DNA of 34,863 bases from Candidatus Ornithomonoglobus merdipullorum. GTDB lineage: Bacteria; Bacillota; Clostridia; UBA1381. The translations under genes and the position numbers were made by a program. Of the stretch, positions 6,420-31,408 are shown piece after piece. The notes below the pieces were generated by a model. The model saw nothing but the letters and a program-made list of their open reading frames with translations. It was not told where the DNA came from and made no database searches. Every line of letters begins with the position of its first letter. Position 1 is the first letter of the stretch. The DNA lies in contig DVNB01000014.1 in the NCBI GenBank assembly GCA_018714695.1, positions 1 to 34,863 of the forward strand, given 5' to 3'.

Positions 6420-7751
6420 CTATGCGCGGTTTATTATACGCCGGAACAGCACGGCGGATGCGGCTGCCGTTATAAATTCCGTTGCCCATATAGCATGCCA
6501 TACGCCGTCAGCGCCTGTTATTCGGCTAAGCACGAAAGCCAGAGGGATGATAACGGCAACATAGCGCAGTACAGATATCACAAGTGACGGTATGCCGCGT
6601 CCGAGCCCTTCTAGAGCGCCTGATGCGACTACAGAGACCGATGATACCATAAAGCCGATGCTTATGAGCCTCAGGGCATGAGATCCCGTGGAAATTGTTG
6701 ACGGATTCGCGGTGAACAAACTGATGAGCGTATCCGGGAATATGAGGCAGACAGCTGTGCCGGCAGCCATGATGGATGCCGCGATAGCAAGCGATACGTA
6801 AAATATCCGTTTTACGCGCCCTAGCTCACCCGCTCCGTGATTGTAACCGATGAGAGGTCTCATGCCCTGAACGACACCGTTCGCGGTTAGGTATATAAAT
6901 GTCTGCAGCTTATAGTATATACCCAGCACAAGCACGTAAGACTGTGAAAATGCTGCCAGGATGCCGTTGAGCGCGGAAACGAGCACCGAAGGGAGCAGCA
7001 TGTTGAGCGATGCCGGGATGCCTACCGCGTACAGGCGTGAATATATGCTTCGTGAAGCTGCTATATTTTTTATACTTGTCTTTACAGGTATAGGACGTAT
7101 GAAATATACCGCTATATAAAAGAGCAGCGTAAGCGTTTGCCCTATGCCGGTGGCGATAGCCGCGCCTTCTATGCCGAGCGCCGGGAAGGGACCGATCCCG
7201 AAGATGAGTATCGGATCAAGGATTATGTTTGCGACGCACCCGATCATCATTCCTGCCATGGAGACCGTCATTCTGCCGACGGATTGAAATATCTTCTCAT
7301 ACGCCACGCCGATGTTGATAACTACGGAAAAAAGCATGGCAATATTGGCGTAGCGAAGCCCCAGCGCTATTACATCCTCAGAGTCGGTGAAAAAGTCCAG
7401 AAATGTTGGAAGAGCAGCAATGCATACGATAGTAAGGATGATCCCATGAACAATGCTCATCAGAACACCGGCAGAAACGGACGAGTCAGCCGCGTCTTTC
7501 CTGCCCTCGCCCAGAAAGAACGCTGCGGCGGTGCTTATCCCTATACCGAAGCCGACGGATACCGCGTTCACAAGATTTTGTACCGGATATACGAGAGAGA
7601 GCGCGGTCATAGCATCCTCGCTTATTTTTGCGACGAAGAAGCTGTCTATTATGTTGTAAAGCGAGTTAACGAGCATCGATACGACCATCGGCAGCGACAT
7701 CCTGACAACGAGCCCGAGTACGGGTCTTTCCTTCATATAAGTCTGATCCAT
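6420..7751 (-). CDS. MATE-family efflux transporter
   Basis: A 443-aa polytopic protein with about 12 hydrophobic segments, duplicated as in the MATE/MOP exporter family. The N-terminal PVLGLVVRMSLPMVVSMLVNSLYNIIDSFFVA and the later GVVQGMRPLIGYNHGAGELGRVKRIF are hallmark MatE motifs. It likely exports cationic drugs or metabolites using a Na+ or H+ gradient; the substrate cannot be predicted. The start ATG at 7751 has GGAGGG at about 8 nt. An in-frame ATG at 7847 would add 32 residues, but it has no ribosome binding site and its codons run through a terminator hairpin, so it is rejected. The gene has its own consensus promoter, diverging from nadA, and a leader with attenuator architecture. 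Confidence 0.93.
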   Translation of the reverse strand: MDQTYMKERPVLGLVVRMSLPMVVSMLVNSLYNIIDSFFVAKISEDAMTALSLVYPVQNLVNAVSVGFGIGISTAAAFFLGEGRKDAADSSVSAGVLMSIVHGIILTIVCIAALPTFLDFFTDSEDVIALGLRYANIAMLFSVVINIGVAYEKIFQSVGRMTVSMAGMMIGCVANIILDPILIFGIGPFPALGIEGAAIATGIGQTLTLLFYIAVYFIRPIPVKTSIKNIAASRSIYSRLYAVGIPASLNMLLPSVLVSALNGILAAFSQSYVLVLGIYYKLQTFIYLTANGVVQGMRPLIGYNHGAGELGRVKRIFYVSLAIAASIMAAGTAVCLIFPDTLISLFTANPSTISTGSHALRLISIGFMVSSVSVVASGALEGLGRGIPSLVISVLRYVAVIIPLAFVLSRITGADGVWHAIWATEFITAAASAVLFRRIINRA

Positions 7752-7770
7752 TTTTTGTTTCCCTCCTGTG

Positions 7771-7812
7771 ATGCGGCATAAAAACAGCCGCACGGTCCAA
7801 ACAGCCGTGCGG
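7771..7812 (-). terminator. Intrinsic terminator inside the MATE leader (probable attenuator)
   Basis: GCCGCACGG (7788-7796) pairs perfectly with CCGTGCGGC (7805-7813) around an 8-nt loop. On the minus strand the stem is followed by TGTTTTTA. It lies between the MATE promoter and the MATE ribosome binding site, so it must be read through for expression. Upstream in the same leader are a second inverted repeat (CCATAT-CAT-ATATGG on the minus strand, 7848-7862) and an ATGCGG that could pair with CCGCAT past the terminator. Confidence 0.7.
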
Positions 7813-7886
7813 CGAAAAAGAGAATTGTTATCTGTAAAAATCCGCATCCATATATGATATGGTTTTAATTATTCGATTCGCTAAAT

Positions 7887-7915
7887 AATATACCATAAAA
7901 CGCTTTTGCTGTCAA
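7887..7915 (-). promoter_or_regulatory. Sigma-A promoter of the MATE gene
   Basis: On the minus strand: TTGACA (7915-7910), 17-nt spacer, TATATT (7892-7887), with an extended -10 TG. Predicted start near 7880 gives a leader of about 130 nt before the MATE start codon. Confidence 0.85.
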
Positions 7916-7946
7916 GTCCCAATATCAATTATTCTTTTGTGCTATT

Positions 7947-8006
7947 TTTACACAAACTTTACACGATCGATAAGAAATTATGATGTTTACACCGAAAAGT
8001 TTACAG
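7947..8006 (+). repeat. Direct repeats TTTACAC/TTTACAG upstream of nadA
   Basis: TTTACAC occurs at 7947-7953, 7958-7964 and 7986-7992, followed by TTTACAG at 8000-8006, which is also the left arm of the nadA operator. The first two are 11 bp apart, one helical turn. They could be auxiliary half-sites for the operon's repressor (inference). Confidence 0.5.
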
Positions 8007-8025
8007 GTGTCTTGACAGCTGTAAA
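8000..8025 (+). promoter_or_regulatory. Probable NiaR operator overlapping the nadA -35
   Basis: A 26-bp palindrome centred between 8012 and 8013: TTTACAGGTGTC, TT, GACAGCTGTAAA, with a single mismatched pair. The -35 hexamer lies within it, so a bound repressor would block RNA polymerase. The operon's fourth gene encodes a NiaR-type repressor, the natural candidate. Assignment rests on position and symmetry. Confidence 0.72.
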
Positions 8026-8040
8026 GTAAACCTGTATAAT
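8012..8040 (+). promoter_or_regulatory. Perfect consensus sigma-A promoter of the nad operon
   Basis: TTGACA (8012-8017), 17-nt spacer, TATAAT (8035-8040). Both hexamers match consensus exactly. Transcription should start near 8047, giving a leader of about 58 nt with a small GCCGGT/ACCGGT-type hairpin (8071-8089) before the ribosome binding site. Confidence 0.92.
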
Positions 8041-8104
8041 ATACGAAACGGGACGAAAAACGGATCAGAAGCCGGTGCAATGTACCGGTGATAAGGAGAA
8101 AATG

Positions 8105-9013
8105 ATGTCAGATACGATAAAAAGGATAAACGAACTAAAAAAGGAAAAAAACGCTGTTATATTTGCTCACTATTACTGCCCGGAGGAAACACAGGCCGCG
8201 GCCGATAATATAGGGGACTCATTCTATCTTGCGAGAGCCGCAAAGGAGACGGACGCGGATATCATAGTATTTGCCGGTGTGCGTTTTATGGGCGAGAGTG
8301 CAAAGATTCTGAATCCCGGAAAGACGGTACTGATGCCGGATATGAAGGCTGACTGCCCGATGGCTCACATGGCGTCGGCGGAGCGTATAGCTGAGGTGCG
8401 GCGCGAGCATCCCGGTATTGCTTTGGTGTGCTATGTGAATTCGACGGCGGAGCTGAAATGCGCAAGCGACGTGTGTGTTACCTCGTCAAATGCCGAAAAA
8501 ATAGTAAGAGCGCTCCCTAACAGGGAAATATATTTTATACCGGACAGGAATCTCGGTAAACACGTTGCGAAGGCGGTGCCGGAAAAGACATTTGTGTTTA
8601 ACGACGGATACTGTCCTATCCATCACGGCTTTTCTGAGGAAGAGCTTATCCGCCTCAGGGAGGAGCATCCGCGGGCTGAGGTCATGGCTCATCCCGAGAG
8701 CCGGGAGTGCATATTGAAACATGCAGGATACATAGGCTCCACGGCGGGGATAATAGACCGTGTTGAACACTCTGATGCGGATGAATTTATAATATTTACG
8801 GAAAAGGGGATCAATTACGCGCTAAAAAACGCCGCACCGGAAAAGAAATTCTTTTATCCCGGATGCGGCTGCGAATGCGCGGATATGAAGCTCAACACAC
8901 CTGAGGCAATACTTCATGTGCTTGAAACGGGTGAAAATGAGGTCATACTTGAGCCCGGGACTGCGGAGCGTGCGCTGGCACCGCTTGAAAGGATGCTCGA
9001 GCTCGGAAAGTGA
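8105..9013 (+). CDS. nadA: Quinolinate synthase NadA
   Basis: Condenses iminoaspartate with dihydroxyacetone phosphate to quinolinate, the second step of de novo NAD synthesis, using a [4Fe-4S] cluster. The three expected cluster cysteines are present at C84 (ADCPMA), C170 (GYCPIHH) and C254 (PGCGCEC). Other family motifs are AHYYCPEE, DSFYLAR, YVNSTAELK and PDRNLG. At 302 aa it is full length. AAGGAG at 8093-8098 sits 6 nt from ATG 8105 and 3 nt from the adjacent ATG 8102, so 8105 is preferred. It is first in nadA-nadB-nadC-niaR, 19 nt before nadB, and probably NiaR-repressed. Confidence 0.96.
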   Translation: MSDTIKRINELKKEKNAVIFAHYYCPEETQAAADNIGDSFYLARAAKETDADIIVFAGVRFMGESAKILNPGKTVLMPDMKADCPMAHMASAERIAEVRREHPGIALVCYVNSTAELKCASDVCVTSSNAEKIVRALPNREIYFIPDRNLGKHVAKAVPEKTFVFNDGYCPIHHGFSEEELIRLREEHPRAEVMAHPESRECILKHAGYIGSTAGIIDRVEHSDADEFIIFTEKGINYALKNAAPEKKFFYPGCGCECADMKLNTPEAILHVLETGENEVILEPGTAERALAPLERMLELGK

Positions 9014-9032
9014 TCACCGGAGGGGATAAAAC

Positions 9033-10337
9033 ATGAAACTTACGACTGATGTTGTTATAGTCGGAACGGGAGTCGGAGGACTTTATTGCGCCCTGAATCT
9101 TCCGAAGGACAAGGATATAATAATGATAACAAAGGCTGCCGTTGACGAGAGCGACTCGTTTCTGGCACAGGGCGGCATATGCATGCTGAAAAACGACGAG
9201 GATTACGACAGCTATTTTGAAGACACTATGCGCGCGGGGCATTATGAGAACAGAAAGGAGTCCGTTGATATAATGATCCGTTCGTCGCAGGAGACTATAG
9301 CCGATCTTATAAGCTATGGTGTCGACTTCAAACGTAATGAAGACGGCTCGCTTGCGTTTACAAAGGAAGGGGCTCATTCAACGCCGAGGATATGCTTTCA
9401 TGAGGACGAGACGGGAAAGGAGATAACGTCGCATCTGCTCAAGGCGGTCCAGGAGCTGCCGAATGTAAAGATAATAGAGCATTGCCGCATGACGGATATA
9501 ATAGAAAAGGACGGCAGATGCGCAGGGATAGTTGCACAGCACGAGAACGGTTCTATGACAGAGATAGATGCAAGGTTTACCGTTCTTGCTACGGGCGGCG
9601 TCGGCGGTTTGTTTGAAAACAGCACAAACTATCCGCATCTTACTGCGGACGCGCTTGCGATCGCGATAAAGCATGGGATAGAGCTGGAGAATATAGATTA
9701 CATACAGATACATCCTACAACGTTGTTTTCAAGAAAACCGGGCAGGAGATTCCTTATCTCCGAATCGGTGCGGGGTGAAGGCGCGGTGCTTTTCAACTCG
9801 CACATGGAGCGGTTCGTGGATGAGCTGCAGCCGCGTGACGTTGTGGCCGCGGCGATAAGCGAGCAGATGAAGAAGGACGGCCGTCCGTATGTATGGCTCT
9901 CCATGAAGCCGATACCCAAAGAGGTGATCCTCTCGCACTTCCCGAACATATACAGGAGATGCCGCGAGGAAGGCTATGATGTGACACGCGAGTGTATCCC
10001 GGTCGTACCGGCTCAGCATTATTTCATGGGCGGGATAAAGGTAGACAGATATTCAAAGACCTCGATGGAGAATCTTTATGCTACGGGTGAGACGGCATGC
10101 AACGGAGTGCACGGCAGGAACAGACTCGCAAGCAATTCGCTGCTTGAAAGCCTTGTTTTCGCAAAACGCGCGGCAAAGCGCATAGCGGAGACATTTGACG
10201 ATTACGACATGATAGAGACCGATACGGATCTTGCGGCTTACAGGGGCTGCGACAAGGATTACGGCAAAACGGTCCTTAATGAAATGGAAAGGATGAGAAA
10301 ATACCATGAACAGCATAACACTGAAAATAAACGCTGA
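9033..10337 (+). CDS. nadB: L-aspartate oxidase NadB, short form
   Basis: FAD enzyme that oxidises L-aspartate to iminoaspartate, the unstable substrate of NadA. The dinucleotide fold is at residues 8-20 (VIVGTGVGGLYCA). SFLAQGGI, HEDETGKEI, IQIHPTTLF, ESVRGEGA, AQHYFMGGI and the C-terminal GRNRLASNSLLESLVF are classic NadB/succinate dehydrogenase flavoprotein motifs. At 434 aa it lacks most of the C-terminal helical domain of ~510-540 aa homologues. This looks native and not a frameshift, because the 3' end overlaps nadC by 32 nt and catalytic motifs are complete. The ribosome binding site is CCGGAGG about 10 nt before ATG 9033. Confidence 0.95.
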   Translation: MKLTTDVVIVGTGVGGLYCALNLPKDKDIIMITKAAVDESDSFLAQGGICMLKNDEDYDSYFEDTMRAGHYENRKESVDIMIRSSQETIADLISYGVDFKRNEDGSLAFTKEGAHSTPRICFHEDETGKEITSHLLKAVQELPNVKIIEHCRMTDIIEKDGRCAGIVAQHENGSMTEIDARFTVLATGGVGGLFENSTNYPHLTADALAIAIKHGIELENIDYIQIHPTTLFSRKPGRRFLISESVRGEGAVLFNSHMERFVDELQPRDVVAAAISEQMKKDGRPYVWLSMKPIPKEVILSHFPNIYRRCREEGYDVTRECIPVVPAQHYFMGGIKVDRYSKTSMENLYATGETACNGVHGRNRLASNSLLESLVFAKRAAKRIAETFDDYDMIETDTDLAAYRGCDKDYGKTVLNEMERMRKYHEQHNTENKR

Positions 10338-11157
10338 TAAGCTTATAATGAGCGCTTTAAGAGAGGATATATCAGACGAGGACGTTACGACAAATGCGGT
10401 GATGCCGGAATATAAAAAGGGGACTGTTGAGCTTATATGCAAGCAGGACGGGATCCTTGCCGGTATAGAAGTATTCAAGCGTGTTTTCACTCTGCTTGAC
10501 GAGAATACAGAGTTTGATATACCGGTAAAGGACGGAGCGGAGATAAAGAAGGGCGAAAAGCTCGGTACCGTAACGGGAGATATCCGGGTTCTGCTTTCGG
10601 GAGAGAGAACGGCGCTGAACTTTTTGCAGCGTATGAGCGGTATAGCAACATACACGCATTCTATAACGGAGCTTTTGAAGGGAACAAAGATACGTCTTCT
10701 GGATACGCGAAAGACGACTCCGAATATGAGGATATTCGAAAAATATGCCGTAAGAGCCGGCGGAGGCGGGAATCATCGATATAATCTTTCCGACGGTGTG
10801 CTTTTAAAGGACAATCATATAGGCGCCGCCGGCGGAGTTAAGGAAGCTGTGCTGATGGCAAAGGCGTATGCGCCGTTTGTGAGAAAGATAGAGGTCGAGA
10901 CGGAGGATCTTGATATGGTCCGCGACGCGGTCGAGGCAGGAGCAGATATAATAATGCTCGACAATATGTCACATGAGATGATGAAAGAGGCTATAGAGAT
11001 CATAGACGGCAGAGCGGAGACCGAGTGCAGCGGAAACGTGACGAAGGAGAACATCAAGGCGCTTGCCGATCTCGGAGTAGATTATATTTCGAGTGGCGCG
11101 CTGACTCATTCGTCGCCTATACTTGATCTTTCTCTTAAAAATCTTCATGCTGTATGA
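10306..11157 (+). CDS. nadC: Nicotinate-nucleotide pyrophosphorylase (carboxylating) NadC
   Basis: Converts quinolinate plus PRPP to nicotinate mononucleotide with loss of CO2, closing the de novo branch. The 283-aa sequence has the N-terminal alpha/beta domain and a type II PRTase barrel with ERTALNFLQRMSGIAT, RLLDTRKTTPNMR, AVRAGGGGNHRYNLSDGVLLKDNHI, KIEVE, IIMLDNM and VDYISSGALTHS. These include the expected quinolinate/PRPP-binding Arg, His and Lys residues. ATG 10306 lies inside the nadB coding region and gives the usual family N-terminus; a weak AAAGGAT is about 15 nt upstream, so translation is probably coupled to nadB. Confidence 0.96.
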   Translation: MNSITLKINADKLIMSALREDISDEDVTTNAVMPEYKKGTVELICKQDGILAGIEVFKRVFTLLDENTEFDIPVKDGAEIKKGEKLGTVTGDIRVLLSGERTALNFLQRMSGIATYTHSITELLKGTKIRLLDTRKTTPNMRIFEKYAVRAGGGGNHRYNLSDGVLLKDNHIGAAGGVKEAVLMAKAYAPFVRKIEVETEDLDMVRDAVEAGADIIMLDNMSHEMMKEAIEIIDGRAETECSGNVTKENIKALADLGVDYISSGALTHSSPILDLSLKNLHAV

Positions 11158-11188
11158 GCCCTAAACACGGAACGGAGGTGCCGGGATT

Positions 11189-11704
11189 TTGAATACTGCC
11201 GAAAGAGAGGACAGGATACTGGAGCGTATAAGAGAGAGCGGTGTGCCGGTTTCCGGCGGAACTCTTGCGCGTGAGCTCGGCGTCAGCCGACAGAGCATCG
11301 TGAAGGATATTTCAGCTTTAAAAGAGCGTGGGTATGAGATAATTGCTACAACTAAGGGGTATATGCTTCGTGTCCAGCCGAGGCCGGAGCGTGTTTTCAA
11401 GGTAGTGCATGCCGACGACGAGGTGAGACGGGAGCTTGAAACGATAGTCCGTACCGGAGGAGAGGTAAGAGATGTTTTCGTGTGGCATAAGATATACGGA
11501 CGGATAGAGGGCGCGCTGAACATAAAGACGCAGCAGGATATAAACGAGTATATCGAGAGTCTGGAAAACGGAAGATCCAGCCCGTTGAAGAAGGTAACGA
11601 ATGAATATCATTATCACACTGTAACGGCAGAAAGTGAGGAGGTCCTTGACCGGATAGGAGAGGCGCTTGACGAAATAGGATTTCTTGTGAAGGACGAGGA
11701 TTGA
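11189..11704 (+). CDS. niaR: Niacin-responsive transcriptional repressor NiaR (YrxA)
   Basis: A 171-aa regulator with an N-terminal HTH_11 winged helix (SGGTLARELGVSRQSIVKDISALKERGYEI, residues ~22-51) and a C-terminal 3H domain that binds nicotinate. Candidate metal/niacin ligands are H74, E82, H141 and H143, with spacing as in the structurally known family member. NiaR represses NAD synthesis and niacin uptake genes when niacin is plentiful. The start is TTG at 11189, 8 nt after GGAGGTG (11174-11180). As the last gene of the nad operon, 31 nt after nadC, it should repress its own promoter through the palindrome at 8000-8025. Confidence 0.93.
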   Translation: MNTAEREDRILERIRESGVPVSGGTLARELGVSRQSIVKDISALKERGYEIIATTKGYMLRVQPRPERVFKVVHADDEVRRELETIVRTGGEVRDVFVWHKIYGRIEGALNIKTQQDINEYIESLENGRSSPLKKVTNEYHYHTVTAESEEVLDRIGEALDEIGFLVKDED

Positions 11705-11712
11705 AAGAAAAG

Positions 11713-11753
11713 CGGGCAGATATGGTGAAAAGCAGCTGTATCTGCCCGTTTTT
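11713..11753 (+). terminator. Intrinsic terminator of the nad operon
   Basis: CGGGCAGATA (11713-11722) pairs perfectly with TATCTGCCCG (11739-11748) and is followed immediately by five T residues (11749-11753). It begins 9 nt after the niaR stop. Confidence 0.93.
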
Positions 11754-11786
11754 GCGTTAAAACTATGAAAATTCATAAAATCGGTC

Positions 11787-11815
11787 TTGAATTATGCTCT
11801 AAAATATGATATACT
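11787..11815 (+). promoter_or_regulatory. Sigma-A promoter of the yicC-remA-gmk housekeeping cluster
   Basis: TTGAAT (11787-11792), 17-nt spacer, TATACT (11810-11815) with extended -10 TG at 11807-11808. This is the only obvious promoter in front of the 14-kb co-directional run. Confidence 0.8.
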
Positions 11816-11895
11816 AAAAAATAATGTGCAAAAGTGTATTACGGGCTGTGACAATGTGTGTTTCGGATCCGTGTTGAAAGGGAATGATAGTAAAA

Positions 11896-12774
11896 ATGTT
11901 AAAGAGCATGACCGGCTACGGCAGATATGAGGCGATCGTCGGTACAAAAAATATCACGGTTGAGATAAAGTCGGTGAATCATAGGTTTTCCGATTATAAC
12001 ATCAAGGTGCCGAGGCAGTACGGTTATATGGAAGAGAGACTGCGCCGCCTGCTGAGCGAGAAGATCTCGCGGGGCAAGGTGGATGTTTTTGTCGGAATGG
12101 AGGCTTGCGGCGAGGCGGACAAGATAATATCCGTCAACAAAGAGCTTGCGGAAAACTACATATCCGCTCTGAAAGAGCTGCGCGACAGCTTTGGACTGAA
12201 GGATGATATCACAGTGTCAAGGGTCGCAGAGTTCCCTGATGTATTCAGGTCTGAGCCGAAGCGTGAAGACGAGGAGCAGCTGTGGCTTGACGTTAAGTCG
12301 GTAACAGAGCAGGCGCTTGACGCCTTCATAGCGATGCGGGAGCGTGAGGGCGGAAGGATAGAGGCCGATCTTAAGACAAGAGTGGAGTATATGAAAACGC
12401 TGGTGGCAGCTATCGAGGAGAGATCGCCGGAGACGGTCGCGGAATACCGTGAAAAGCTGCGCGCGAAGCTTGAAGAGCTCTTGGGCGAGCACGGTTACGA
12501 TGAGGCGAGAGTGCTCACTGAGGCCGCGATATTTGCCGATAAGATCGCAGTGAACGAGGAGACGGTCAGGCTCGGCAGTCATTTTGAAGAGTTTGAGGAG
12601 ATCATAGCGAGTGATGAGCCGGCAGGCCGCAGGCTTGATTTCCTTATACAGGAGATAAACCGCGAGGTGAACACGATCGGTTCGAAGGCATCGGATCTTG
12701 AGATAGCGAAGGTAGTTGTGACACTTAAGGGCGAGATCGAAAAGCTAAGAGAACAGATACAGAATATAGAGTGA
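11896..12774 (+). CDS. YicC/YloC-family endoribonuclease
   Basis: A 292-aa protein starting with the hallmark MLKSMTGYGR. It continues with VEIKSVNHRFSDYNIKVPR and ends with the DUF1732 half (EVNTIGSKASDLEIAKVVVTLKGEIEKLREQIQNIE). YicC proteins are oligomeric endoribonucleases linked to RNA turnover. ATG 11896 gives the canonical N-terminus; ATG 11884, four codons earlier, abuts the GGGA at 11880-11883 and would have no spacing, so it is less likely. It is first in the Firmicutes yicC-remA-gmk-rpoZ order, 24 nt before remA. Confidence 0.93.
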   Translation: MLKSMTGYGRYEAIVGTKNITVEIKSVNHRFSDYNIKVPRQYGYMEERLRRLLSEKISRGKVDVFVGMEACGEADKIISVNKELAENYISALKELRDSFGLKDDITVSRVAEFPDVFRSEPKREDEEQLWLDVKSVTEQALDAFIAMREREGGRIEADLKTRVEYMKTLVAAIEERSPETVAEYREKLRAKLEELLGEHGYDEARVLTEAAIFADKIAVNEETVRLGSHFEEFEEIIASDEPAGRRLDFLIQEINREVNTIGSKASDLEIAKVVVTLKGEIEKLREQIQNIE

Positions 12775-12798
12775 TCTCTCGGCAAAGGGGAATAGCAT

Positions 12799-13068
12799 AT
12801 GAGATTGATAAATATAGGATTCGGCAATATGGTCTCGGCGGAACGTGCCGTGGCTGTGATAAGCCCGGACAGCGCGCCGGTCAAAAGGCTCATGCACGAG
12901 GCTGAGGACAAGGGACTTCTGGTGAACGCGACCTACGGAAGAAGGACCCGCTCGGTGGTCGTGATGGATTCAAAGCATGTTATATTGTCGGCGATCACTC
13001 CCGAGAAGCTTGCCGTAAGACTTGACGGTGAGTATGAGCCGGGAGAAAATGATGACGGGGAGGAATGA
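12799..13068 (+). CDS. remA: Extracellular matrix regulator RemA (DUF370)
   Basis: An 89-aa DUF370 protein. [31 protein letters not shown] and the [21 protein letters not shown] region are the conserved DNA-binding signature of Bacillus RemA, which forms octameric rings that wrap DNA and activates biofilm matrix and osmoprotection genes. In many Clostridia its targets are unknown. The acidic tail is short. AAAGGGG at 12784-12790 is 8 nt from ATG 12799. Conserved position directly before gmk. Confidence 0.94.
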
Positions 13069-13074
13069 TATTTT

Positions 13075-13671
13075 ATGAAGGGAATACTTTTTGTTCTTTC
13101 GGGGCCGTCTGGGACCGGAAAGGGTACAGTCTGCGATGAGCTTATAAAGCGCGGCTGCGGCGTGTCGCTCTCCGTCTCGATGACTACCCGCGAATGCAGG
13201 GAAGGAGAAACTCCGGGGGTGACATATCACTACGTGACCAAGGACGAATTCAAGCGCAATATAGAAAACGGTGAGATGCTTGAATATGCTCAGTACGGTG
13301 AAAACTATTACGGTACGCCGAGGTCATCGGTCGAAGAAAAGCTTTCCGAGGGCATGGATGTTTTGCTTGAGATAGAGCCGCAGGGCGCGCTTCAGGTAAA
13401 GCGGAAGTTCCCCGAGGCTGTGTTGGTGTTCCTTGTTCCGCCGTCGATGAGTGAGCTTAAAAGACGGCTCATAACTCGGGGCAGAGAGGGTGAGGATGAG
13501 ATCGATAAGAGGATCGAGACCGCCAGATGGGAGCTTACACAGGCAGAAAAGTATAATGTGCATATAGTCAATGACACGCTTGACGAGTGTGTGGACCGTG
13601 TCATCGAGTATTTTGACGAAAAGCGTGCCGAGAGGAAAAAAATAGAGGAGCTTATAAATGAAAAGGTCTGA
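13075..13671 (+). CDS. gmk: Guanylate kinase
   Basis: Phosphorylates GMP to GDP with ATP. The 198-aa product has the P-loop GPSGTGKGT at residues 10-18, the GMP-binding SMTTRECREGETPGVTYHYV, the QYGENYYGTP motif and the lid TRGREGEDEIDKRIETA. Length is standard. It starts 6 nt after the remA stop, with GGGGAGG inside the end of remA as ribosome binding site. It is an essential purine enzyme that also affects (p)ppGpp balance in Firmicutes. Confidence 0.97.
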   Translation: MKGILFVLSGPSGTGKGTVCDELIKRGCGVSLSVSMTTRECREGETPGVTYHYVTKDEFKRNIENGEMLEYAQYGENYYGTPRSSVEEKLSEGMDVLLEIEPQGALQVKRKFPEAVLVFLVPPSMSELKRRLITRGREGEDEIDKRIETARWELTQAEKYNVHIVNDTLDECVDRVIEYFDEKRAERKKIEELINEKV

Positions 13672-13719
13672 TCAGACGATCGGACAAACAGCATAGAACA
13701 TGATCGGAGGTAATTTATT

Positions 13720-14232
13720 ATGATGACAAAACCCGGTATTACAGAGCTTGACAGATGTGTTGACAGCCGTTACACACTTGTATCTGTAGTTGCAAAGCGT
13801 GCAAGGATGATAGGAATGGAGCGGAACGATCCGGATTCTATCTACAATCCGCACGCGGAAAAACCGGTGACGCAGGCTGTAAACGAGATCGCAAACGGTA
13901 TAGTCGGTTACGTTCGCAGCGAGGCGATAAAGAAAGCGCAGGAGTACGAGGAAGAAAAGCTTGAGGCGATCTCGATGCTGCATGAGACGATAGCCGAGGA
14001 GCTTTCGGAGCACGGCGGCCACGATGAACACAGTGAGCAGAGCGAGAATACCGAGCAGAGCGGCGAGGCTGAGGAAGCATCGGAGGGTGCGGCTCCCGGT
14101 ATGTATGATGACCCGACAAAAACGGACGGCGATGAGTATTTCGGTATACTTGACGCCGCGCTTGCTGATGCACAGGCTGCGGTGGATAAAGAGAATGCCG
14201 ATGTTGGGAACGGCACGGCGGACGGAGAATAA
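13720..14232 (+). CDS. rpoZ: DNA-directed RNA polymerase omega subunit with acidic C-terminal extension
   Basis: The N-terminal ~75 residues are omega: ITELDRCVDSRYTLVSVVAKRARM, then EKPVTQAVNEIANGIVGYV. Omega helps assemble and stabilise beta-prime. The protein is 170 aa, about twice the usual 60-90 aa. Residues ~85-170 form a low-complexity acidic tail rich in Glu, Asp, Ser and Gly (for example EHSEQSENTEQSGEAEEASEG), with no recognised domain and probably disordered. The linker between the two omega motifs (MERNDPDSIYNPHA) is slightly longer than usual. GGAGG at 13706-13710 is 9 nt from ATG 13720. It lies between gmk and priA as expected; the stop overlaps the priA start by one base. Confidence 0.9.
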   Translation: MMTKPGITELDRCVDSRYTLVSVVAKRARMIGMERNDPDSIYNPHAEKPVTQAVNEIANGIVGYVRSEAIKKAQEYEEEKLEAISMLHETIAEELSEHGGHDEHSEQSENTEQSGEAEEASEGAAPGMYDDPTKTDGDEYFGILDAALADAQAAVDKENADVGNGTADGE

Positions 14233-16667
14233 TGTATGCAGAGGTGATAGTCGATCAGCGCTCGCGCGCTGTCGACAGACCGTTTGACTATGCGATACCG
14301 AAGGAGCTTTCTGAAAAGGTATCTGCCGGTTCAAGGGTGATAGTCCCGTTCTCGCGGGGAAACCGGGAAACTGAGGGCTTTGTGCTGCGCACAAAGGAAA
14401 GAGCCGATGCGTTGGGGCAGGTAAAAGCGATGATCGGATTGTCGGGTGACGAGCCGGCATTTCCGGAAAGCATGGTGCCTCTGATAGAGTATCTGCATAA
14501 GAGGTGTCTTGCGCCGTATCTTGATATAATACATGCCGCGATACCTGCGGGTTCTGCCGTTAAGACCGTGATGCACATAACCCTTCTGGATAAGGCAAAA
14601 CTTACCGGGAGAAGCGAGACAGATAAAAAGATCGTTTCTCTGCTTGAGGATTTCGGAGGCGGGATCGATATCGTTTCACTGATGTCGTATTTTGATACCG
14701 ATATCAAAGGCAGGCTCACGGAGCTTGACAGGCGCGGAGTGATCTCACGCTCCTACAGCCATGAGCGGAGTGTGCATAAGCGCGTTATACGCGCCGTGAG
14801 GCTTGCGGTGAGCGAGGAAGAGGCTGACGAGTATATCGGGAACAACAAGAGGGCAAAAGCGCAGAAGAGGATGATAGGTGTTCTTAAAAGCTGTGAATAT
14901 CTGTCGGCGGCAGACCTTGTAAGATTTTCGATCGGGAGCTATCAGACTTTGAAGGCTGTGGTCAAGGCGGGGATCGCCGAGTATTTTGACATAACCGTCG
15001 ACCGTGAGGTCTACAGTGACGACGGTGCAAGGACGCAGTTCCCGGAGCTCACTCCGGAACAGAAAGCCGCAGCTGATACGATCTGCAGCGCCGCCAAAAC
15101 CGGCGGAGGAACATTTCTGCTGCACGGAGTTACCGGCAGCGGAAAGACCGAGGTATTTATGCGCGTCATTGCAGACGCTGTGGAGCGCGGAAAGACGGCA
15201 ATGCTGCTCGTACCTGAAATATCGCTCACACCTCAGATGGTTTCGAGGTTCGTGTCACGGTTCGGCGCGCGCATCGCGATACTGCACAGCGGTCTGTCGC
15301 TTGGTGAGAGATATGATCAATGGGGCAGGATAATGCGCGGCGAGGCGGATATAGTCATCGGTGCAAGAAGCGCGGTATTTGCTCCGATAGAAAACATAGG
15401 GGCTGTTATTCTCGACGAGGAGCACTCCGAGACATATAAGTCGGAGATGTCACCGAGATACCATGCGCGTGAGGCGGCTCTGTTCCGCGCCGCGCAATGG
15501 GGTGCCGCTGCGGTGCTTGCTTCGGCAACGCCGTCGGCGGAAAGCTATCACAAGGCTCTTTGCGGAGAATACAAGCTGCTTGAAATGAAAAAACGATATA
15601 ATGAGAACAGGATGCCGGAGATCGAGATCGTTGATATGAGAAACGAGCTTGAGGGCGGAAATAAGAACATGTTCTCGAGACGGCTATATGAGGCTGTTCG
15701 TGAAAATATAGACCGCGGCTGCCAGACGATACTCCTGATGAACAGGCGGGGCTATTCCACATTTGTTTCGTGCAGAAAATGCGGGTATGTTCCGATGTGC
15801 CCGAACTGCAATATATCGTTGACATACCATAGCTACGGGAATATATTAAAATGCCACTACTGCGGCTACACACATTCGAATTACGAAAAATGCCCGTCCT
15901 GCGGCAGCAAGTATATCCGTTATTTCGGCGGAGGCACGCAGAGGGTAGAAAATGAGATAAAGCGTATATTTCCAGATGCGACATCGATACGTCTTGATGC
16001 TGATGTCACAACACGGAAAAACTCACACAGACGTATACTTGAGAAATTCGCAGAGGAAAATATAGATATACTTATAGGAACTCAGATGGTAGCAAAGGGG
16101 CTGGATTTCCCGAATGTGACTCTCGTCGGTGTAATATCGGCGGATACTATGCTGCATATTAATGATTTCAGGAGCGGCGAGCGGACGTTTGCGCTTCTGG
16201 AGCAGGTTTCGGGAAGGGCGGGCCGGGGTGAAAAGCAGGGCAGAGCGATAATCCAGACATATAATCCCGATAATTTTGCAATAGAGCTCGTAAAGACTCA
16301 TGATTATCGGACTTTTTACAGAAAGACGGCTGAAGAACGGAGACTCATGTGGTATCCGCCGTTCTGTGAAATGGTCTGCATAATGATAACCGATCCGGAC
16401 CGCAATGCTGTGATGCGCGCGGCGCATCTGTACCGCAGAGCGTTCGGCGATATAAATGAGATACCGCAGAAGCTGGCTGTTCTGGGACCTATCCCTTCGG
16501 GTATCTCGAAGATAAAGAACAAGTACCGCTGGCAGATACTCGTGAAATGCGAGAATGCCGACGCCATAAATGAGAGATTGATCTCGGCGGCGGAAACGGT
16601 GAAAAGAGAAAAGGAATTTGCGGAGACCGTCGTATCGATCGACAAGGGCCCCGTTACCATATATTGA
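14232..16667 (+). CDS. priA: Primosomal protein N' (replication restart helicase PriA)
   Basis: An 811-aa superfamily 2 3'-5' helicase that restarts stalled forks. Domains in order: N-terminal 3'-OH-binding domain (YAEVIVDQRSRAVDRPFDYAIP), a winged-helix region, and helicase lobes with Walker A GVTGSGKT (residues 299-306) and DEEH (395-398). The zinc-binding insertion near residues 514-555 contains CRKCGY, MCPNCN, KCHYCGY and KCPSCGSKY. Then come GTQMVAKGLDFPNVT and the QVSGRAGRG arginine-finger motif. It begins at the A of the rpoZ stop (TAATG), so translation is coupled. coaBC, often between rpoZ and priA in Firmicutes, is missing. Confidence 0.97.
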   Translation: MYAEVIVDQRSRAVDRPFDYAIPKELSEKVSAGSRVIVPFSRGNRETEGFVLRTKERADALGQVKAMIGLSGDEPAFPESMVPLIEYLHKRCLAPYLDIIHAAIPAGSAVKTVMHITLLDKAKLTGRSETDKKIVSLLEDFGGGIDIVSLMSYFDTDIKGRLTELDRRGVISRSYSHERSVHKRVIRAVRLAVSEEEADEYIGNNKRAKAQKRMIGVLKSCEYLSAADLVRFSIGSYQTLKAVVKAGIAEYFDITVDREVYSDDGARTQFPELTPEQKAAADTICSAAKTGGGTFLLHGVTGSGKTEVFMRVIADAVERGKTAMLLVPEISLTPQMVSRFVSRFGARIAILHSGLSLGERYDQWGRIMRGEADIVIGARSAVFAPIENIGAVILDEEHSETYKSEMSPRYHAREAALFRAAQWGAAAVLASATPSAESYHKALCGEYKLLEMKKRYNENRMPEIEIVDMRNELEGGNKNMFSRRLYEAVRENIDRGCQTILLMNRRGYSTFVSCRKCGYVPMCPNCNISLTYHSYGNILKCHYCGYTHSNYEKCPSCGSKYIRYFGGGTQRVENEIKRIFPDATSIRLDADVTTRKNSHRRILEKFAEENIDILIGTQMVAKGLDFPNVTLVGVISADTMLHINDFRSGERTFALLEQVSGRAGRGEKQGRAIIQTYNPDNFAIELVKTHDYRTFYRKTAEERRLMWYPPFCEMVCIMITDPDRNAVMRAAHLYRRAFGDINEIPQKLAVLGPIPSGISKIKNKYRWQILVKCENADAINERLISAAETVKREKEFAETVVSIDKGPVTIY

Positions 16668-27603: not shown

Positions 27604-27633
27604 TTGACAAAATATATACGGTTGTGATAAAAT
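27604..27633 (+). promoter_or_regulatory. Sigma-A promoter of the zinc-ribbon gene cluster
   Basis: TTGACA (27604-27609), 18-nt spacer, TAAAAT (27628-27633). It begins 13 nt after the cysteine desulfurase stop and leaves a leader of about 45 nt with a good GAAGGAGG ribosome binding site. Confidence 0.78.
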
Positions 27634-27682
27634 ATATCAAAAGTGCTACTCCTGGCGAGGGAGGGCTGAAGGAGGCAAGACT

Positions 27683-28267
27683 ATGGCGTTTTTTGATAAT
27701 ATAGGCAAGAAGATAAGTGATCTGGGTCAGGGCGCGATGACAAAAACAAGAGATCTCGCTGATTCCGCAAGGACAAGCGCTGCGATCTCTGATGAGGAAC
27801 GAAAAATAAATTCATATTACTCTCAGCTTGGAAGACTGTATTATGCAAAGTGTGCAGGCAGCGCAGATGGTGAGTTTTTGAATATAGTAAATATGATTAA
27901 GGATTCAAACAGAAGGATAGAAGAGCTCAGAGCAGAAAACCGTGCAAGAAAGGGACTTGTAAAATGTCCGCAGTGCGGTGCGGAAAATGCCGTCGATTCG
28001 TTATTTTGCTGTGCATGCGGAAACCGTATGGAGTTTCATGCAGCTACGCCATCGGGCGGCGCGGAGAACGTTTCAGGTGAGAAAGCTGCCGGGCAGGATA
28101 TCGTTTCGGATGAAAAGCAGCCGGATAGTGAGTCGGCGGCTGATGAGACGGCAACGGGAGCACCGGCTGAAACCAACGAAATTCCGGAGCAGAGAGTATG
28201 CAGCTCTTGCGGTGCTCCAATCGGCGAAGGAGCAGTATTTTGCGGCAGCTGCGGTACACGGCAGTAA
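27683..28267 (+). CDS. Double zinc-ribbon soluble protein with N-terminal coiled coil
   Basis: A 194-aa protein with no membrane segment. Residues ~1-90 are charged and helical, with a probable coiled coil in SNRRIEELRAENRARK. A first four-cysteine ribbon (CPQCGAENAVDSLFCCACG) is at about 94-112. A disordered Ala/Glu/Gly linker leads to a second ribbon (CSSCGAPIGEGAVFCGSCG) at the C-terminus. Ribbons of this kind usually bind one Zn2+ each and mediate protein contacts. No enzymatic motif; function unknown. GAAGGAGG lies 8 nt before ATG 27683. First of three zinc-ribbon genes. Confidence 0.85.
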   Translation: MAFFDNIGKKISDLGQGAMTKTRDLADSARTSAAISDEERKINSYYSQLGRLYYAKCAGSADGEFLNIVNMIKDSNRRIEELRAENRARKGLVKCPQCGAENAVDSLFCCACGNRMEFHAATPSGGAENVSGEKAAGQDIVSDEKQPDSESAADETATGAPAETNEIPEQRVCSSCGAPIGEGAVFCGSCGTRQ

Positions 28268-28316
28268 ATAAAGGTGAAAGGAGGAGGCACGGTTTAGGCT
28301 GCGCCGACAATAGGTA

Positions 28317-28952
28317 ATGTTTTGCAGAAAATGCGGTTCGGAAATACCGGACGGGTCTAAATTTTGTATTAAATGCGGTGAACCTGTAGAGACACCGGAA
28401 ATGACAAATGACGCTGAAATACCGGTTGTCGATGCGAATAGATCGCGATACAGAAAAATAGGGATCATTGCTGTTATCGCGGCAGCAGCCGTAGTTGCGG
28501 CGGTAGTTTTGGTATTCGTATTCGGAGGAGGACGGAGCTACAGGAAGGTCATAGACGAGTTTTTTGAGGCAGCCATAGTCGATATGGATGCCGAGGATAT
28601 GCTTGAACTCTATCCTCGAGAGATCGTAAGGAAAGAGTTTGGCAGCTACAGTTATGCAGATAATGGGGATATATATCTTGAAATGGAATTTGGCGATCGC
28701 CGGGGCAGGCCGGATATAAACATTGTACACAACGAGAGATATGATGATGAGCGTTTAAATTCACTAAGGCAGGAGCTTATGGGTGAATACGGTATCTCGC
28801 CGTCCGAAGCACGTGACGTAATTGTCACGTACAGCGTTGCCACCAGAAGCGGAAATGACAAGACGGGCACGGTCCGGCTGAGTATGATAAAACTTGGCAG
28901 GACATGGTATCTGCTCGAATTTGATGATGCGGATATGAGTAATCTTGCATAA
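28317..28952 (+). CDS. Membrane-anchored zinc-ribbon protein with extracytoplasmic domain
   Basis: A 211-aa protein. The N-terminal ribbon CRKCGSEIPDGSKFCIKCG is at residues 3-21 in the cytosol. A short linker and one membrane segment (IGIIAVIAAAAVVAAVVLVFVF, ~44-65) follow. The outer domain of about 145 residues (YRKVIDEFFEAAIVDMDAEDMLELYP to GRTWYLLEFDD) has the pattern of NTF2-like/DUF4878-type lipoprotein domains (inference). ATG 28317 has only a weak AGG upstream; a strong AAAGGAGG at 28277-28284 lies 32 nt away, across a sequence that could fold and bring it closer. Confidence 0.82.
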   Translation: MFCRKCGSEIPDGSKFCIKCGEPVETPEMTNDAEIPVVDANRSRYRKIGIIAVIAAAAVVAAVVLVFVFGGGRSYRKVIDEFFEAAIVDMDAEDMLELYPREIVRKEFGSYSYADNGDIYLEMEFGDRRGRPDINIVHNERYDDERLNSLRQELMGEYGISPSEARDVIVTYSVATRSGNDKTGTVRLSMIKLGRTWYLLEFDDADMSNLA

Positions 28953-28997
28953 TCGTTTTGATAACGGGAATGAAAAAACATGGAAGGTACGAGTGAG

Positions 28998-30026
28998 ATG
29001 AAAAAATATTGCAGTGTATGCGGAGCCGAGCTTGACGAGAATGACGTGTTTTGCGGTGCGTGCGGCGCTGTTCAGCGAGAAAGACACAGTTCAAATTGCA
29101 GATATTGCGGAGCGGCGCTTGAGCCGGGCGGTGAATACTGCCCTAATTGCGGAAGAAGGACAGTCATAGACTCGGCTGACAGAAGAATCTATGCTGGAAA
29201 CAAATTAGGAGGAAACGGAGGCTCTGGTGATTACCGTAGAGGCGTCCCCAATGGCATGCAGGACAGCTTAGGCGGCGCTGCGGGAGGCGGCAACGTAAGC
29301 CCGGATAAGGGAGGTAATACAGGTACGATTATAGCCGCGGTTTGTTCGGCTATAGCTGTTATTGCGGTTGTAGTATGCCTTGTCATTGTATTTGGCCCCG
29401 GAAATTCAGAAAGGGCGGATCGGGAGGCTGGGACCGCATTGGTCACAGAGAATATTACGCCGACACCTTTGCCGACAGCCACGCCGTCACGTTCGATGGA
29501 TCGGCAGCCGGGGCAGTATAATGATACCGCGCGTGTACCGGTACAGAGCTATGCGCCCGCACCGCCGCCGGCGCGTCCGACTGTGCCGCCGTCGACAGAT
29601 ACACGTCCGGATAACTCATATTCTAAATCGTATCTGACATACAGGGACAGTGAATATTCATTCTCGTGTCCGTATCCGAGTGACTTCATACTGACTCATG
29701 TGGATAATGATTTCTTCCGCTATACACTTGCAGCACCGGATGGCAGCGGTGCGGTGTACATATGTGCAACTCAGAACAGCAATGGCAGAACACCGCAGAC
29801 GGTGCGCGATAATTTTCTTGCGACCTATGGAGGTACACCGGATTATGAGAACAGCGGCAGCAGTTGGTGTGCGATAAGCACATTTGACGGCAGCCGATGG
29901 CATTACGGCTACTTCTCACTGAGTAAAAGCATGATACGCGGCTTTGAGGTCCATTATTCGGATGCCTACAGAAACCGTTACGATAAGTATATAAACGATA
30001 TCTATGACGGATTGTCGCTGAACTGA
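28998..30026 (+). CDS. Membrane-anchored double zinc-ribbon protein with PsbP-like outer domain
   Basis: About 342 aa. Two tandem ribbons lie at the N-terminus (CSVCGAELDENDVFCGACG and CRYCGAALEPGGEYCPNCG). A Gly-rich cytosolic linker and one membrane segment (IIAAVCSAIAVIAVVVCLVIVF) follow, then a Pro/Thr-rich spacer (TPTPLPTATPS; APAPPPARPTVPPS) like a cell-wall-crossing stalk. The outer domain (~215-342) begins YRDSEYSFSCPYPSDF, a pattern seen in PsbP/DUF1795-like domains (inference). ATG 28998 gives the typical MKKYCSVCG start; ATG 28980 in frame adds six residues and has its own GGGA, so either may be used. Third gene of the cluster. Confidence 0.83.
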   Translation: MKKYCSVCGAELDENDVFCGACGAVQRERHSSNCRYCGAALEPGGEYCPNCGRRTVIDSADRRIYAGNKLGGNGGSGDYRRGVPNGMQDSLGGAAGGGNVSPDKGGNTGTIIAAVCSAIAVIAVVVCLVIVFGPGNSERADREAGTALVTENITPTPLPTATPSRSMDRQPGQYNDTARVPVQSYAPAPPPARPTVPPSTDTRPDNSYSKSYLTYRDSEYSFSCPYPSDFILTHVDNDFFRYTLAAPDGSGAVYICATQNSNGRTPQTVRDNFLATYGGTPDYENSGSSWCAISTFDGSRWHYGYFSLSKSMIRGFEVHYSDAYRNRYDKYINDIYDGLSLN

Positions 30027-30054
30027 GATGGCGGGATGTTTCGAAGCAAAATAA

Positions 30055-30098
30055 ACGGAGGCTGTAAGCTTTTGACAAAGATTACAGCCTCCGTTTTT
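30055..30098. terminator. Bidirectional intrinsic terminator between convergent genes
   Basis: A perfect 13-bp stem pairs 30055-30067 (ACGGAGGCTGTAA) with 30082-30094, loop 14 nt. Rightward it is followed by TTTTT (30094-30098). Leftward the minus strand shows TTTATTTT. It serves both the zinc-ribbon cluster and the MerR gene. Confidence 0.93.
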
Positions 30099-30105
30099 AT
30101 AAATT

Positions 30106-30483
30106 TTACATCCAGCTCTGTTTTACGCCGTTATCGACCGCCTCGCCGTACAGTTCTATCTTGTGGTTGAGCCTGTCCAGAGTTTCGTTGATCTGATCGC
30201 GCTGCCTGACAAGTTTCCCGCGCTGCTCACAGAGCAGATCAAGTCTTGCGGGAATTGTCGAATCTCCTTCCATACAGAGCTTCACATACTTAGTGAGTGC
30301 TTCTATCGGCATCCCCGCGCTTCTCATACACAGAGCGAGCGATACCCATGAGAGATCTTTTTCCGTATAGTCTCTTATACCTCCTGCTGTGCGTGTTACC
30401 GGCGGCAGTACACCTATACGCTCGTAATAACGCAGCGTATCCTGCGATATATCGTATTTTTCACTTACCTGTTTTATAGTCAT
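30106..30483 (-). CDS. MerR-family transcriptional regulator
   Basis: A 125-aa protein with the N-terminal MerR winged helix (IKQVSEKYDISQDTLRYYERIGVLPPVTR, then GIRDYTEKDLSWVSLALCMRSAGMPIEALTKY). A dimerisation coiled coil covers ~80-115 (LLCEQRGKLVRQRDQINETLDRLNHKI). The C-terminal effector region is very short with no metal-binding cysteine pair, so it resembles the small aldehyde/stress-type (AdhR/NmlR-like) members more than CueR or ZntR. GAGGTGG precedes ATG 30483 by about 8 nt. It is the last gene of the minus-strand larB-permease-merR unit, 16 nt after the permease. Confidence 0.92.
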   Translation of the reverse strand: MTIKQVSEKYDISQDTLRYYERIGVLPPVTRTAGGIRDYTEKDLSWVSLALCMRSAGMPIEALTKYVKLCMEGDSTIPARLDLLCEQRGKLVRQRDQINETLDRLNHKIELYGEAVDNGVKQSWM

Positions 30484-30499
30484 ATTATTACCACCTCAT

Positions 30500-31408
30500 T
30501 CACATTATACAATTTACCATAAAGCCCGCAGCCAATGAGAATACTATCACAAATGCGATATAAAGTGCAAAATGCTTTGCACCGAGCACTATCTTGAGCG
30601 CGCCCAGATTTGTGATCTTGGTCGACGGACCGGTTATCATAAACGATGTTGCCGCGCCCATACTCATGCCTCCGGCAAGCCATTGCTGCAAAAGCGGTAT
30701 TGTGCCGCCGCCGCAAACATACAGCGGCACACCGATGGTCGCTGCCATCAGAAGTCCGAAGCCTTCATTTGAAAAGAGTCCGGCAAACGAATCAGCGGGG
30801 ACATATCTCTGAAAAAGCACCGAAAGTATTACGCCTACTAAAAACCACGGTCCGGTCGCTTTAATATTCCTGCCTATGTTTTTCAGAAGCCTTAAAAGCA
30901 TGTTCGGATCCGTGTCTCGTCCGGCACGTTCTTCGAATTTTGTGAATCTGAAAAAGGGTCTGTTTTTAAAGAAGATACGTATAAGAAGTCCCGCAGTTAC
31001 GCCGCATAAAAAACATGACACGAACCGCACGGTGAGCGCTGCCGGACCCAATGCAGCGCTGTATATAAGCAGCTGCGGATTTAAGAGAACAGAGCTCATC
31101 ATGAAGGCGGCAAGATAATCGTCACGAAGTCCCTTTTGTGAGAATGATGCGGCTATGGGTATCGTACCGTACATGCACAGCGGGGATGCTATGCCCAGAA
31201 GAGACGCAGGTATTAGGCCTATGATACCGAGATGTCTGTCCTGGACTGCCGTGAGAAGCCTGTGTATCCTGTCCTTGCCGAAAACGGAGACGATCGAGCC
31301 TATAACGATACCCAGCGCCCAGTAGGGAAGTATCTGCCGCACCTGAATATCGAAATAATACCATAGATATACTGCTTCGCGTTGAATTATATCAATAATG
31401 TTTTCCAT
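30500..31408 (-). CDS. ArsP/DUF318-type permease
   Basis: A 302-aa polytopic protein of the ArsP_1 (UPF0718/YraQ) family, with about 8 hydrophobic segments. The two inverted family signatures are GIASPLCMYGTIPIA (C78) and VPLYVCGGGTIPLLQQWL, followed by MITGPSTKITNLGALK. Known members export trivalent organoarsenicals or are proposed metal exporters; the substrate here is unknown. ATG 31408 is 7 nt beyond the larB stop with no clear ribosome binding site, so it is probably translated by coupling. It is followed 16 nt later by MerR, suggesting the regulator senses the exported compound. Confidence 0.87.
   Translation of the reverse strand: MENIIDIIQREAVYLWYYFDIQVRQILPYWALGIVIGSIVSVFGKDRIHRLLTAVQDRHLGIIGLIPASLLGIASPLCMYGTIPIAASFSQKGLRDDYLAAFMMSSVLLNPQLLIYSAALGPAALTVRFVSCFLCGVTAGLLIRIFFKNRPFFRFTKFEERAGRDTDPNMLLRLLKNIGRNIKATGPWFLVGVILSVLFQRYVPADSFAGLFSNEGFGLLMAATIGVPLYVCGGGTIPLLQQWLAGGMSMGAATSFMITGPSTKITNLGALKIVLGAKHFALYIAFVIVFSLAAGFMVNCIM

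What the first reader, a model, noticed from the sequence alone, without database searches (positions are those of the whole stretch)
27604..30098. Three-gene zinc-ribbon cluster, possibly an uncharacterised membrane sensing or scaffold system
One promoter and one terminator bracket three different proteins that share CxxC-type ribbons. One is soluble with a coiled coil and two ribbons. One is membrane-anchored with one ribbon and an NTF2-like outer domain. One is membrane-anchored with two ribbons, a Pro/Thr stalk and a PsbP-like outer domain. The shared cytosolic ribbons could let the soluble member join the two anchors, relaying outer-domain signals inward. No enzyme is present. It is the best candidate for an undescribed system in this window.
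Basis: partly seen in the sequence, partly recalled or inferred. Interest (0 to 1): 0.65.

Follow-up and report, generated by a model that had tools for sequence, protein, structure and literature searches.

The report
Zinc-ribbon adaptor and membrane-anchor gene cluster
Three neighbouring genes in an uncultured Clostridia genome make a soluble adaptor and two membrane proteins that all carry small zinc-binding clips; relatives keep the adaptor and one anchor together, so they probably form a membrane complex, but each piece is of a common, poorly understood kind.

Summary
In 5 of 16 species of the genus, g1 (coiled coil, two ribbons) and g2 (ribbon-TM-outer domain) lie together in the same order, in four genomic settings. 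Four of the five also have a gene the window lacks: gX, one ribbon plus two TM helices, between g1 and g2. g3 is optional: intact only in the window and G008, a deleted stub in G003, not beside g2 in G004 and G007. A g1 homologue directly followed by a g2 homologue recurs once in another order, so the core is g1 + g2. Ribbon-TM-outer-domain proteins, often in arrays, are common in this clade and of a described architecture (NTF2-like DUFs with ribbons; Bacillus YdjG; staphylococcal TcaA). PspA is absent from all 16 genomes, so this is not a ydj-type Psp system. ZIP transporters next door in three genomes are separate units behind terminators. g2's NTF2-like fold is weakly supported; g3's PsbP-like fold could not be tested. 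Best reading: an envelope-associated scaffold or sensor in which g1 docks on ribbons of membrane partners. Docking and purpose are inference.

The parts
27604..27633 (+). promoter-like TTGACA-N18-TAAAAT (TG before the -10)
   Evidence: same hexamers, spacing and adjoining bases upstream of g1 in G008
27683..28267 (+). g1: soluble, amphipathic N-terminal stretch, coiled coil, ribbon 1 (aa 95-117), acidic linker, ribbon 2 (aa 172-193)
   Evidence: homologues
28268..28316 (+). 49-nt gap where relatives carry gX (one ribbon + two TM helices); a lone AAAGGAGGAGG lies too far from the g2 start and may be the old gX ribosome-binding site
   Evidence: the deletion reading is inference
28317..28952 (+). 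g2: N-terminal ribbon, one TM helix (about aa 47-71), outer domain aa 73-211, probably NTF2-like
28980..30026 (+). g3: two N-terminal ribbons, one TM helix (about aa 114-138), Pro/Thr stalk, outer domain aa 215-348 (fold unknown)
30053..30098 (+). intrinsic terminator hairpin and U run

Best explanation
The cluster encodes a small envelope-associated scaffold or sensor. Shown: g1 and g2 (with gX in most relatives, g3 in some) are kept together in order; g1 has no TM helix, a coiled coil and two ribbons; g2, gX and g3 carry ribbons at the N-terminal end before the TM helices, and g2 and g3 a domain after it. Inferred: the anchors sit N-in, so the ribbons are cytosolic and the g2 and g3 domains lie outside; g1 lies along the inner membrane face by its amphipathic N-terminus and coiled coil and docks through ribbon-ribbon contacts on the anchors, single ribbons pairing in trans as the two halves of a double zinc ribbon do in one chain; the outer domains bind a wall component or small ligand. 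The complex would organise or tune membrane or wall proteins rather than drive transcription, since no output domain is present.
For: g1-g2 linkage in 5 of 16 genus genomes behind four different upstream genes (iscS; an mnmG-like gene; a Cu-amine-oxidase-N-like exported protein; a ClC-like gene). gX between them in four of five. g1-type followed by g2-type in G103 of another order: hhalign probability 96.8 (g1) and 95.7 (g2); there the next gene is a lipoprotein with a similar domain, which supports an outside location. A distant g1 paralogue is followed by a coiled-coil protein with a C-terminal TM helix in 12 of 18 family loci, so pairing with a membrane partner is recurrent. Works-like precedent: Bacillus YdjG and YdjH are needed to bring soluble YdjI and PspA to the membrane (PMC8581546).
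Against: No interaction has been shown. g3 is dispensable and gX is missing here. Fold evidence is weak (g2 model pLDDT 53.9, best Foldseek E 0.07); the two folds were modelled from only two sequences each. The linkage within the genus could be partly simple inheritance, and the link outside it rests on one genome.
Confidence: 0.4

Rival explanations
1. A loose array of independently acting ribbon-TM proteins. Such genes multiply and shuffle in this clade, and adjacency reflects shuffling and shared promoter use, not a complex.
For: Ribbon genes are abundant (14 ribbon matches in G000, 36 in G008, 20 in G007). Arrays with other outer domains occur (SH3, DUF6612, YARHG, NTF2-like). g3 and gX come and go.
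Against: The g1-g2 order is constant in five genomes in four settings and recurs in another order. Outside the ribbons the proteins are not alike, so this is not tandem duplication.
Confidence: 0.3
2. Zinc homeostasis: the ribbons sense or buffer cytosolic zinc for a neighbouring ZIP importer.
For: A ZIP (PF02535) gene lies directly downstream in G004, G007 and G008.
Against: Terminator hairpins separate it from the cluster in all three. The ZIP orthologue is in all 16 genus genomes, the cluster in five. In G000 and G003 the ZIP gene is on another contig.
Confidence: 0.08
3. Envelope-stress or cell-wall-antibiotic protein set comparable in use to staphylococcal TcaA: outer domains bind wall precursors or drugs.
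For: Same order of parts as TcaA (ribbon, TM, outer part; the TM and outer part of TcaA from my own knowledge). TcaA is a 454-residue ribbon protein linked to glycopeptide response (PMC10611510).
Against: Score of g2 to the TcaA model is 10.1 against a cut-off of 550. No phenotype data.
Confidence: 0.12
4. Membrane-tethered nucleic-acid binders: the ribbons bind DNA or RNA and the outer domain controls them.
For: Proposed for NTF2-DUF-ribbon proteins (PMC3924330) and for YdjG (PMC9239133).
Against: The ribbons are short and carry no helix-turn-helix; g1's linker is acidic (sequence).
Confidence: 0.1

Closest known systems
Bacillus subtilis pspA-ydjGHI operon (PMC11237479, PMC8581546)
   Same: Membrane protein with ribbons and an NTF2-fold domain (YdjG); soluble partners brought to membrane anchors
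   Different: No PspA in any genus genome; no SPFH or TPM domain in the cluster proteins; g1 is not PspA
NTF2-like DUF proteins with zinc ribbons (DUF4878, DUF3887, DUF3828; PMC3924330)
   Same: Ribbon, TM, exported NTF2-like domain
   Different: g2 matches none of these Pfam families above cut-off; it is in a conserved pair with g1
TcaA (Staphylococcus)
   Same: N-terminal ribbon, TM, outer part
   Different: Length and operon differ; TcaA model score far below cut-off
Double zinc ribbon (DZR, PF12773) and Zn_Ribbon_1 (PF13240) proteins
   Same: Ribbon motif above cut-off (PF13240 in all three; PF12773 in g1 and g3)
   Different: These families describe the ribbon only, not the cluster

Membership tests
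Zn_Ribbon_1 (PF13240) | CxxC...CxxC ribbon scoring above the Pfam cut-off | tested here: met
   41.4, 36.8 and 40.8 bits against 25
pspA-ydjGHI (Psp) system | PspA/IM30 protein (PF04012) present | tested here: not met
   none in 16 genomes, 9 of 14 control genomes positive
pspA-ydjGHI (Psp) system | SPFH (YdjI) and TPM (YdjH) partners | tested here: inconclusive
   no such domain among the three cluster proteins or the window neighbours scanned; rest of the genome not searched
NTF2-like superfamily (g2 outer domain) | NTF2 fold | tested here: inconclusive
   two-sequence model pLDDT 53.9; top Foldseek rows mostly NTF2-like but best E 0.072; VIA Z at most 5.8, with designed, cystatin-like, MOG1 and NTF2 rows close together
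DUF4878 (PF12870) | score above gathering cut-off | tested here: not met
   one of five members, E 0.13
TcaA (NF053815) | score above curated cut-off | tested here: not met
   10.1 against 550 bits, g2
PsbP-like (g3 outer domain) | PsbP/MOG1 fold | tested here: inconclusive
   model pLDDT about 30-45 in the domain, no meaningful match; no solved relative by sequence

The most novel reading that the evidence does not exclude
g1-type proteins are a general class of soluble adaptors in Clostridia that plug, by ribbon-ribbon pairing in trans, into interchangeable ribbon-TM anchors with different outer domains, making a modular PspA-free membrane scaffold of which this cluster is one dedicated set.
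Probability: 0.15. Interest if true: 0.65.

Novelty: new variant of a known kind. Interest (0 to 1): 0.35.

Why it matters
Ribbon-TM-outer-domain proteins are abundant in these uncultured Clostridia and I found no role assigned to them in the papers searched. A conserved soluble partner (g1) and a small two-TM companion (gX) give a concrete, testable complex and a way to ask what the shared ribbons are for.

Tried and rejected
ZIP link as an operon: rejected, terminators in between and different spread. Psp membership: rejected, no PspA. gX elsewhere in G000: the C106 ORF shares only the ribbon with gX, so gX is not found in this 86%-complete assembly. Solved structures by sequence: no relatives of either outer domain. 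Structure of g3: uninformative. Genome-collection scan with g3 found only the G008 record, an uncultured Clostridia bacterium. A first ZIP tree was wrong because of strand handling and was redone: the cluster holders are G004+G007, G008+G000 and G003, with at least two changes on the tree. Literature searches for ribbon + YARHG, ribbon + TcaA and similar terms found nothing on such a cluster. A search of the order of G103 found no further copy of its g2 homologue.

Full report
What is there. The window (contig C9 of a 2.65-Mb, 124-contig assembly, G000) carries three consecutive + strand ORFs at 27683-28267 (g1), 28317-28952 (g2) and 28980-30026 (g3). Pfam finds two zinc ribbons in g1, one in g2 and two in g3 above cut-off, and no other kind of domain above cut-off. 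A good promoter-like site lies at 27604-27633 and a strong hairpin with a U run at 30053-30098 (-26.7 kcal/mol, z -7.3). Between window and G008 orthologues the proteins are 53-57% identical and changes concentrate at third codon positions, so all three are real genes. About 11 genes of G000 have a PF13240 ribbon; three side by side by random placement has a probability of about 1.7e-4.

Relatives. In 60 related genomes, close g2 homologues occur only in the same genus: G003, G004, G007, G008; close g1 homologues occur in those four plus a weaker one in G059. All four, like G000, have g1 and g2 on one strand and in the same order. These four have a further gene between the two, gX, about 134-155 aa with one ribbon and two hydrophobic helices. 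The window lacks it, and its 49-nt gap holds a Shine-Dalgarno-like AAAGGAGGAGG too far from the g2 start, which may be the old gX site (inference). g3 is intact next to g2 only in G000 and G008; G003 has a stub with the first ribbon half and the last codons of the outer domain (one search shows it as a broken frame). The upstream gene differs: iscS-type aminotransferase in G000, and by my reading of the sequences an mnmG-like gene in G008, a Cu-amine-oxidase-N-like exported protein in G004 and G007, and a ClC-like gene in G003. The promoter of g1 is nevertheless alike in G000 and G008. So the unit is kept although its setting changes. A ZIP transporter gene follows in G004, G007 and G008, but a terminator hairpin separates it and it is present in all 16 genus genomes.

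Beyond the genus. The g2 outer domain is found in G071 of another genus of the family, near ribbon-TM proteins, one with a YARHG domain, and weakly in 8 genomes elsewhere among 391 sampled from the class. In one of these, G103 of another order, the g2 homologue directly follows a g1 homologue and precedes a lipoprotein with a similar domain. The g3 outer domain occurs in 37 of 70 family genomes, in the aligned cases on ribbon-TM proteins. g1 or a distant g1-type paralogue is detected in 28 of 30 good genomes of the order, and in 12 of 18 family loci the paralogue is followed by an acidic coiled-coil protein with a C-terminal TM helix.

Folds. The alignments that could be handed to the predictor held two sequences each. 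The g2 model (pLDDT 53.9) has a helix and strand order compatible with an NTF2-like domain and its top Foldseek rows are mostly NTF2-like, but none is significant, and the second look ranks cystatin-like and MOG1 rows about equally. The g3 model is too poor to use. 'NTF2-like' is therefore likely but unproved, 'PsbP-like' untested.

Mechanism. Best reading: a membrane-associated scaffold or sensor. g1, with an amphipathic N-terminus and coiled coil, would dock on the ribbons of g2, gX and g3, and the outer domains would face the wall. The g1-g2 linkage is shown; docking, topology and purpose are inferred. The nearest working analogy is pspA-ydjGHI, where YdjG and YdjH are needed to bring soluble YdjI and PspA to the membrane (PMC8581546), but PspA is absent from the genus, so this is not that system.

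Verdict. A real, partly conserved cluster of a known architecture class with an overlooked fourth gene in its relatives; new variant of a known kind, moderate interest.

Noticed in passing
L060 (G007:C45) 7748-16650 -: Array of eight consecutive ORFs with ribbons, nearly all also with TM helices and carrying different outer domains (SH3, DUF6612, the g3-type domain).
   Followed up: partly
L064 6121-7461 - (G000:C94) and 12 loci of related genomes: A coiled-coil + one-ribbon g1 paralogue is followed by an acidic coiled-coil protein with a C-terminal TM helix; a conserved pair of unknown function.
   Followed up: partly
L137 3844-7041 - (G006:C24) and L151 3734-6884 (G071:C38): Ribbon-TM proteins with YARHG or NTF2-like outer domains lie side by side; in G006 next to a yidC-type operon.
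   Followed up: partly
window 30106-31408 -: MerR regulator and ArsP_1 permease convergent with the cluster, ending just past its terminator.
   Followed up: no
L161 6082-8758 + (G103:C17): g1-like, g2-like, NTF2-like lipoprotein and double-ribbon TM2-type genes in a row.
   Followed up: partly
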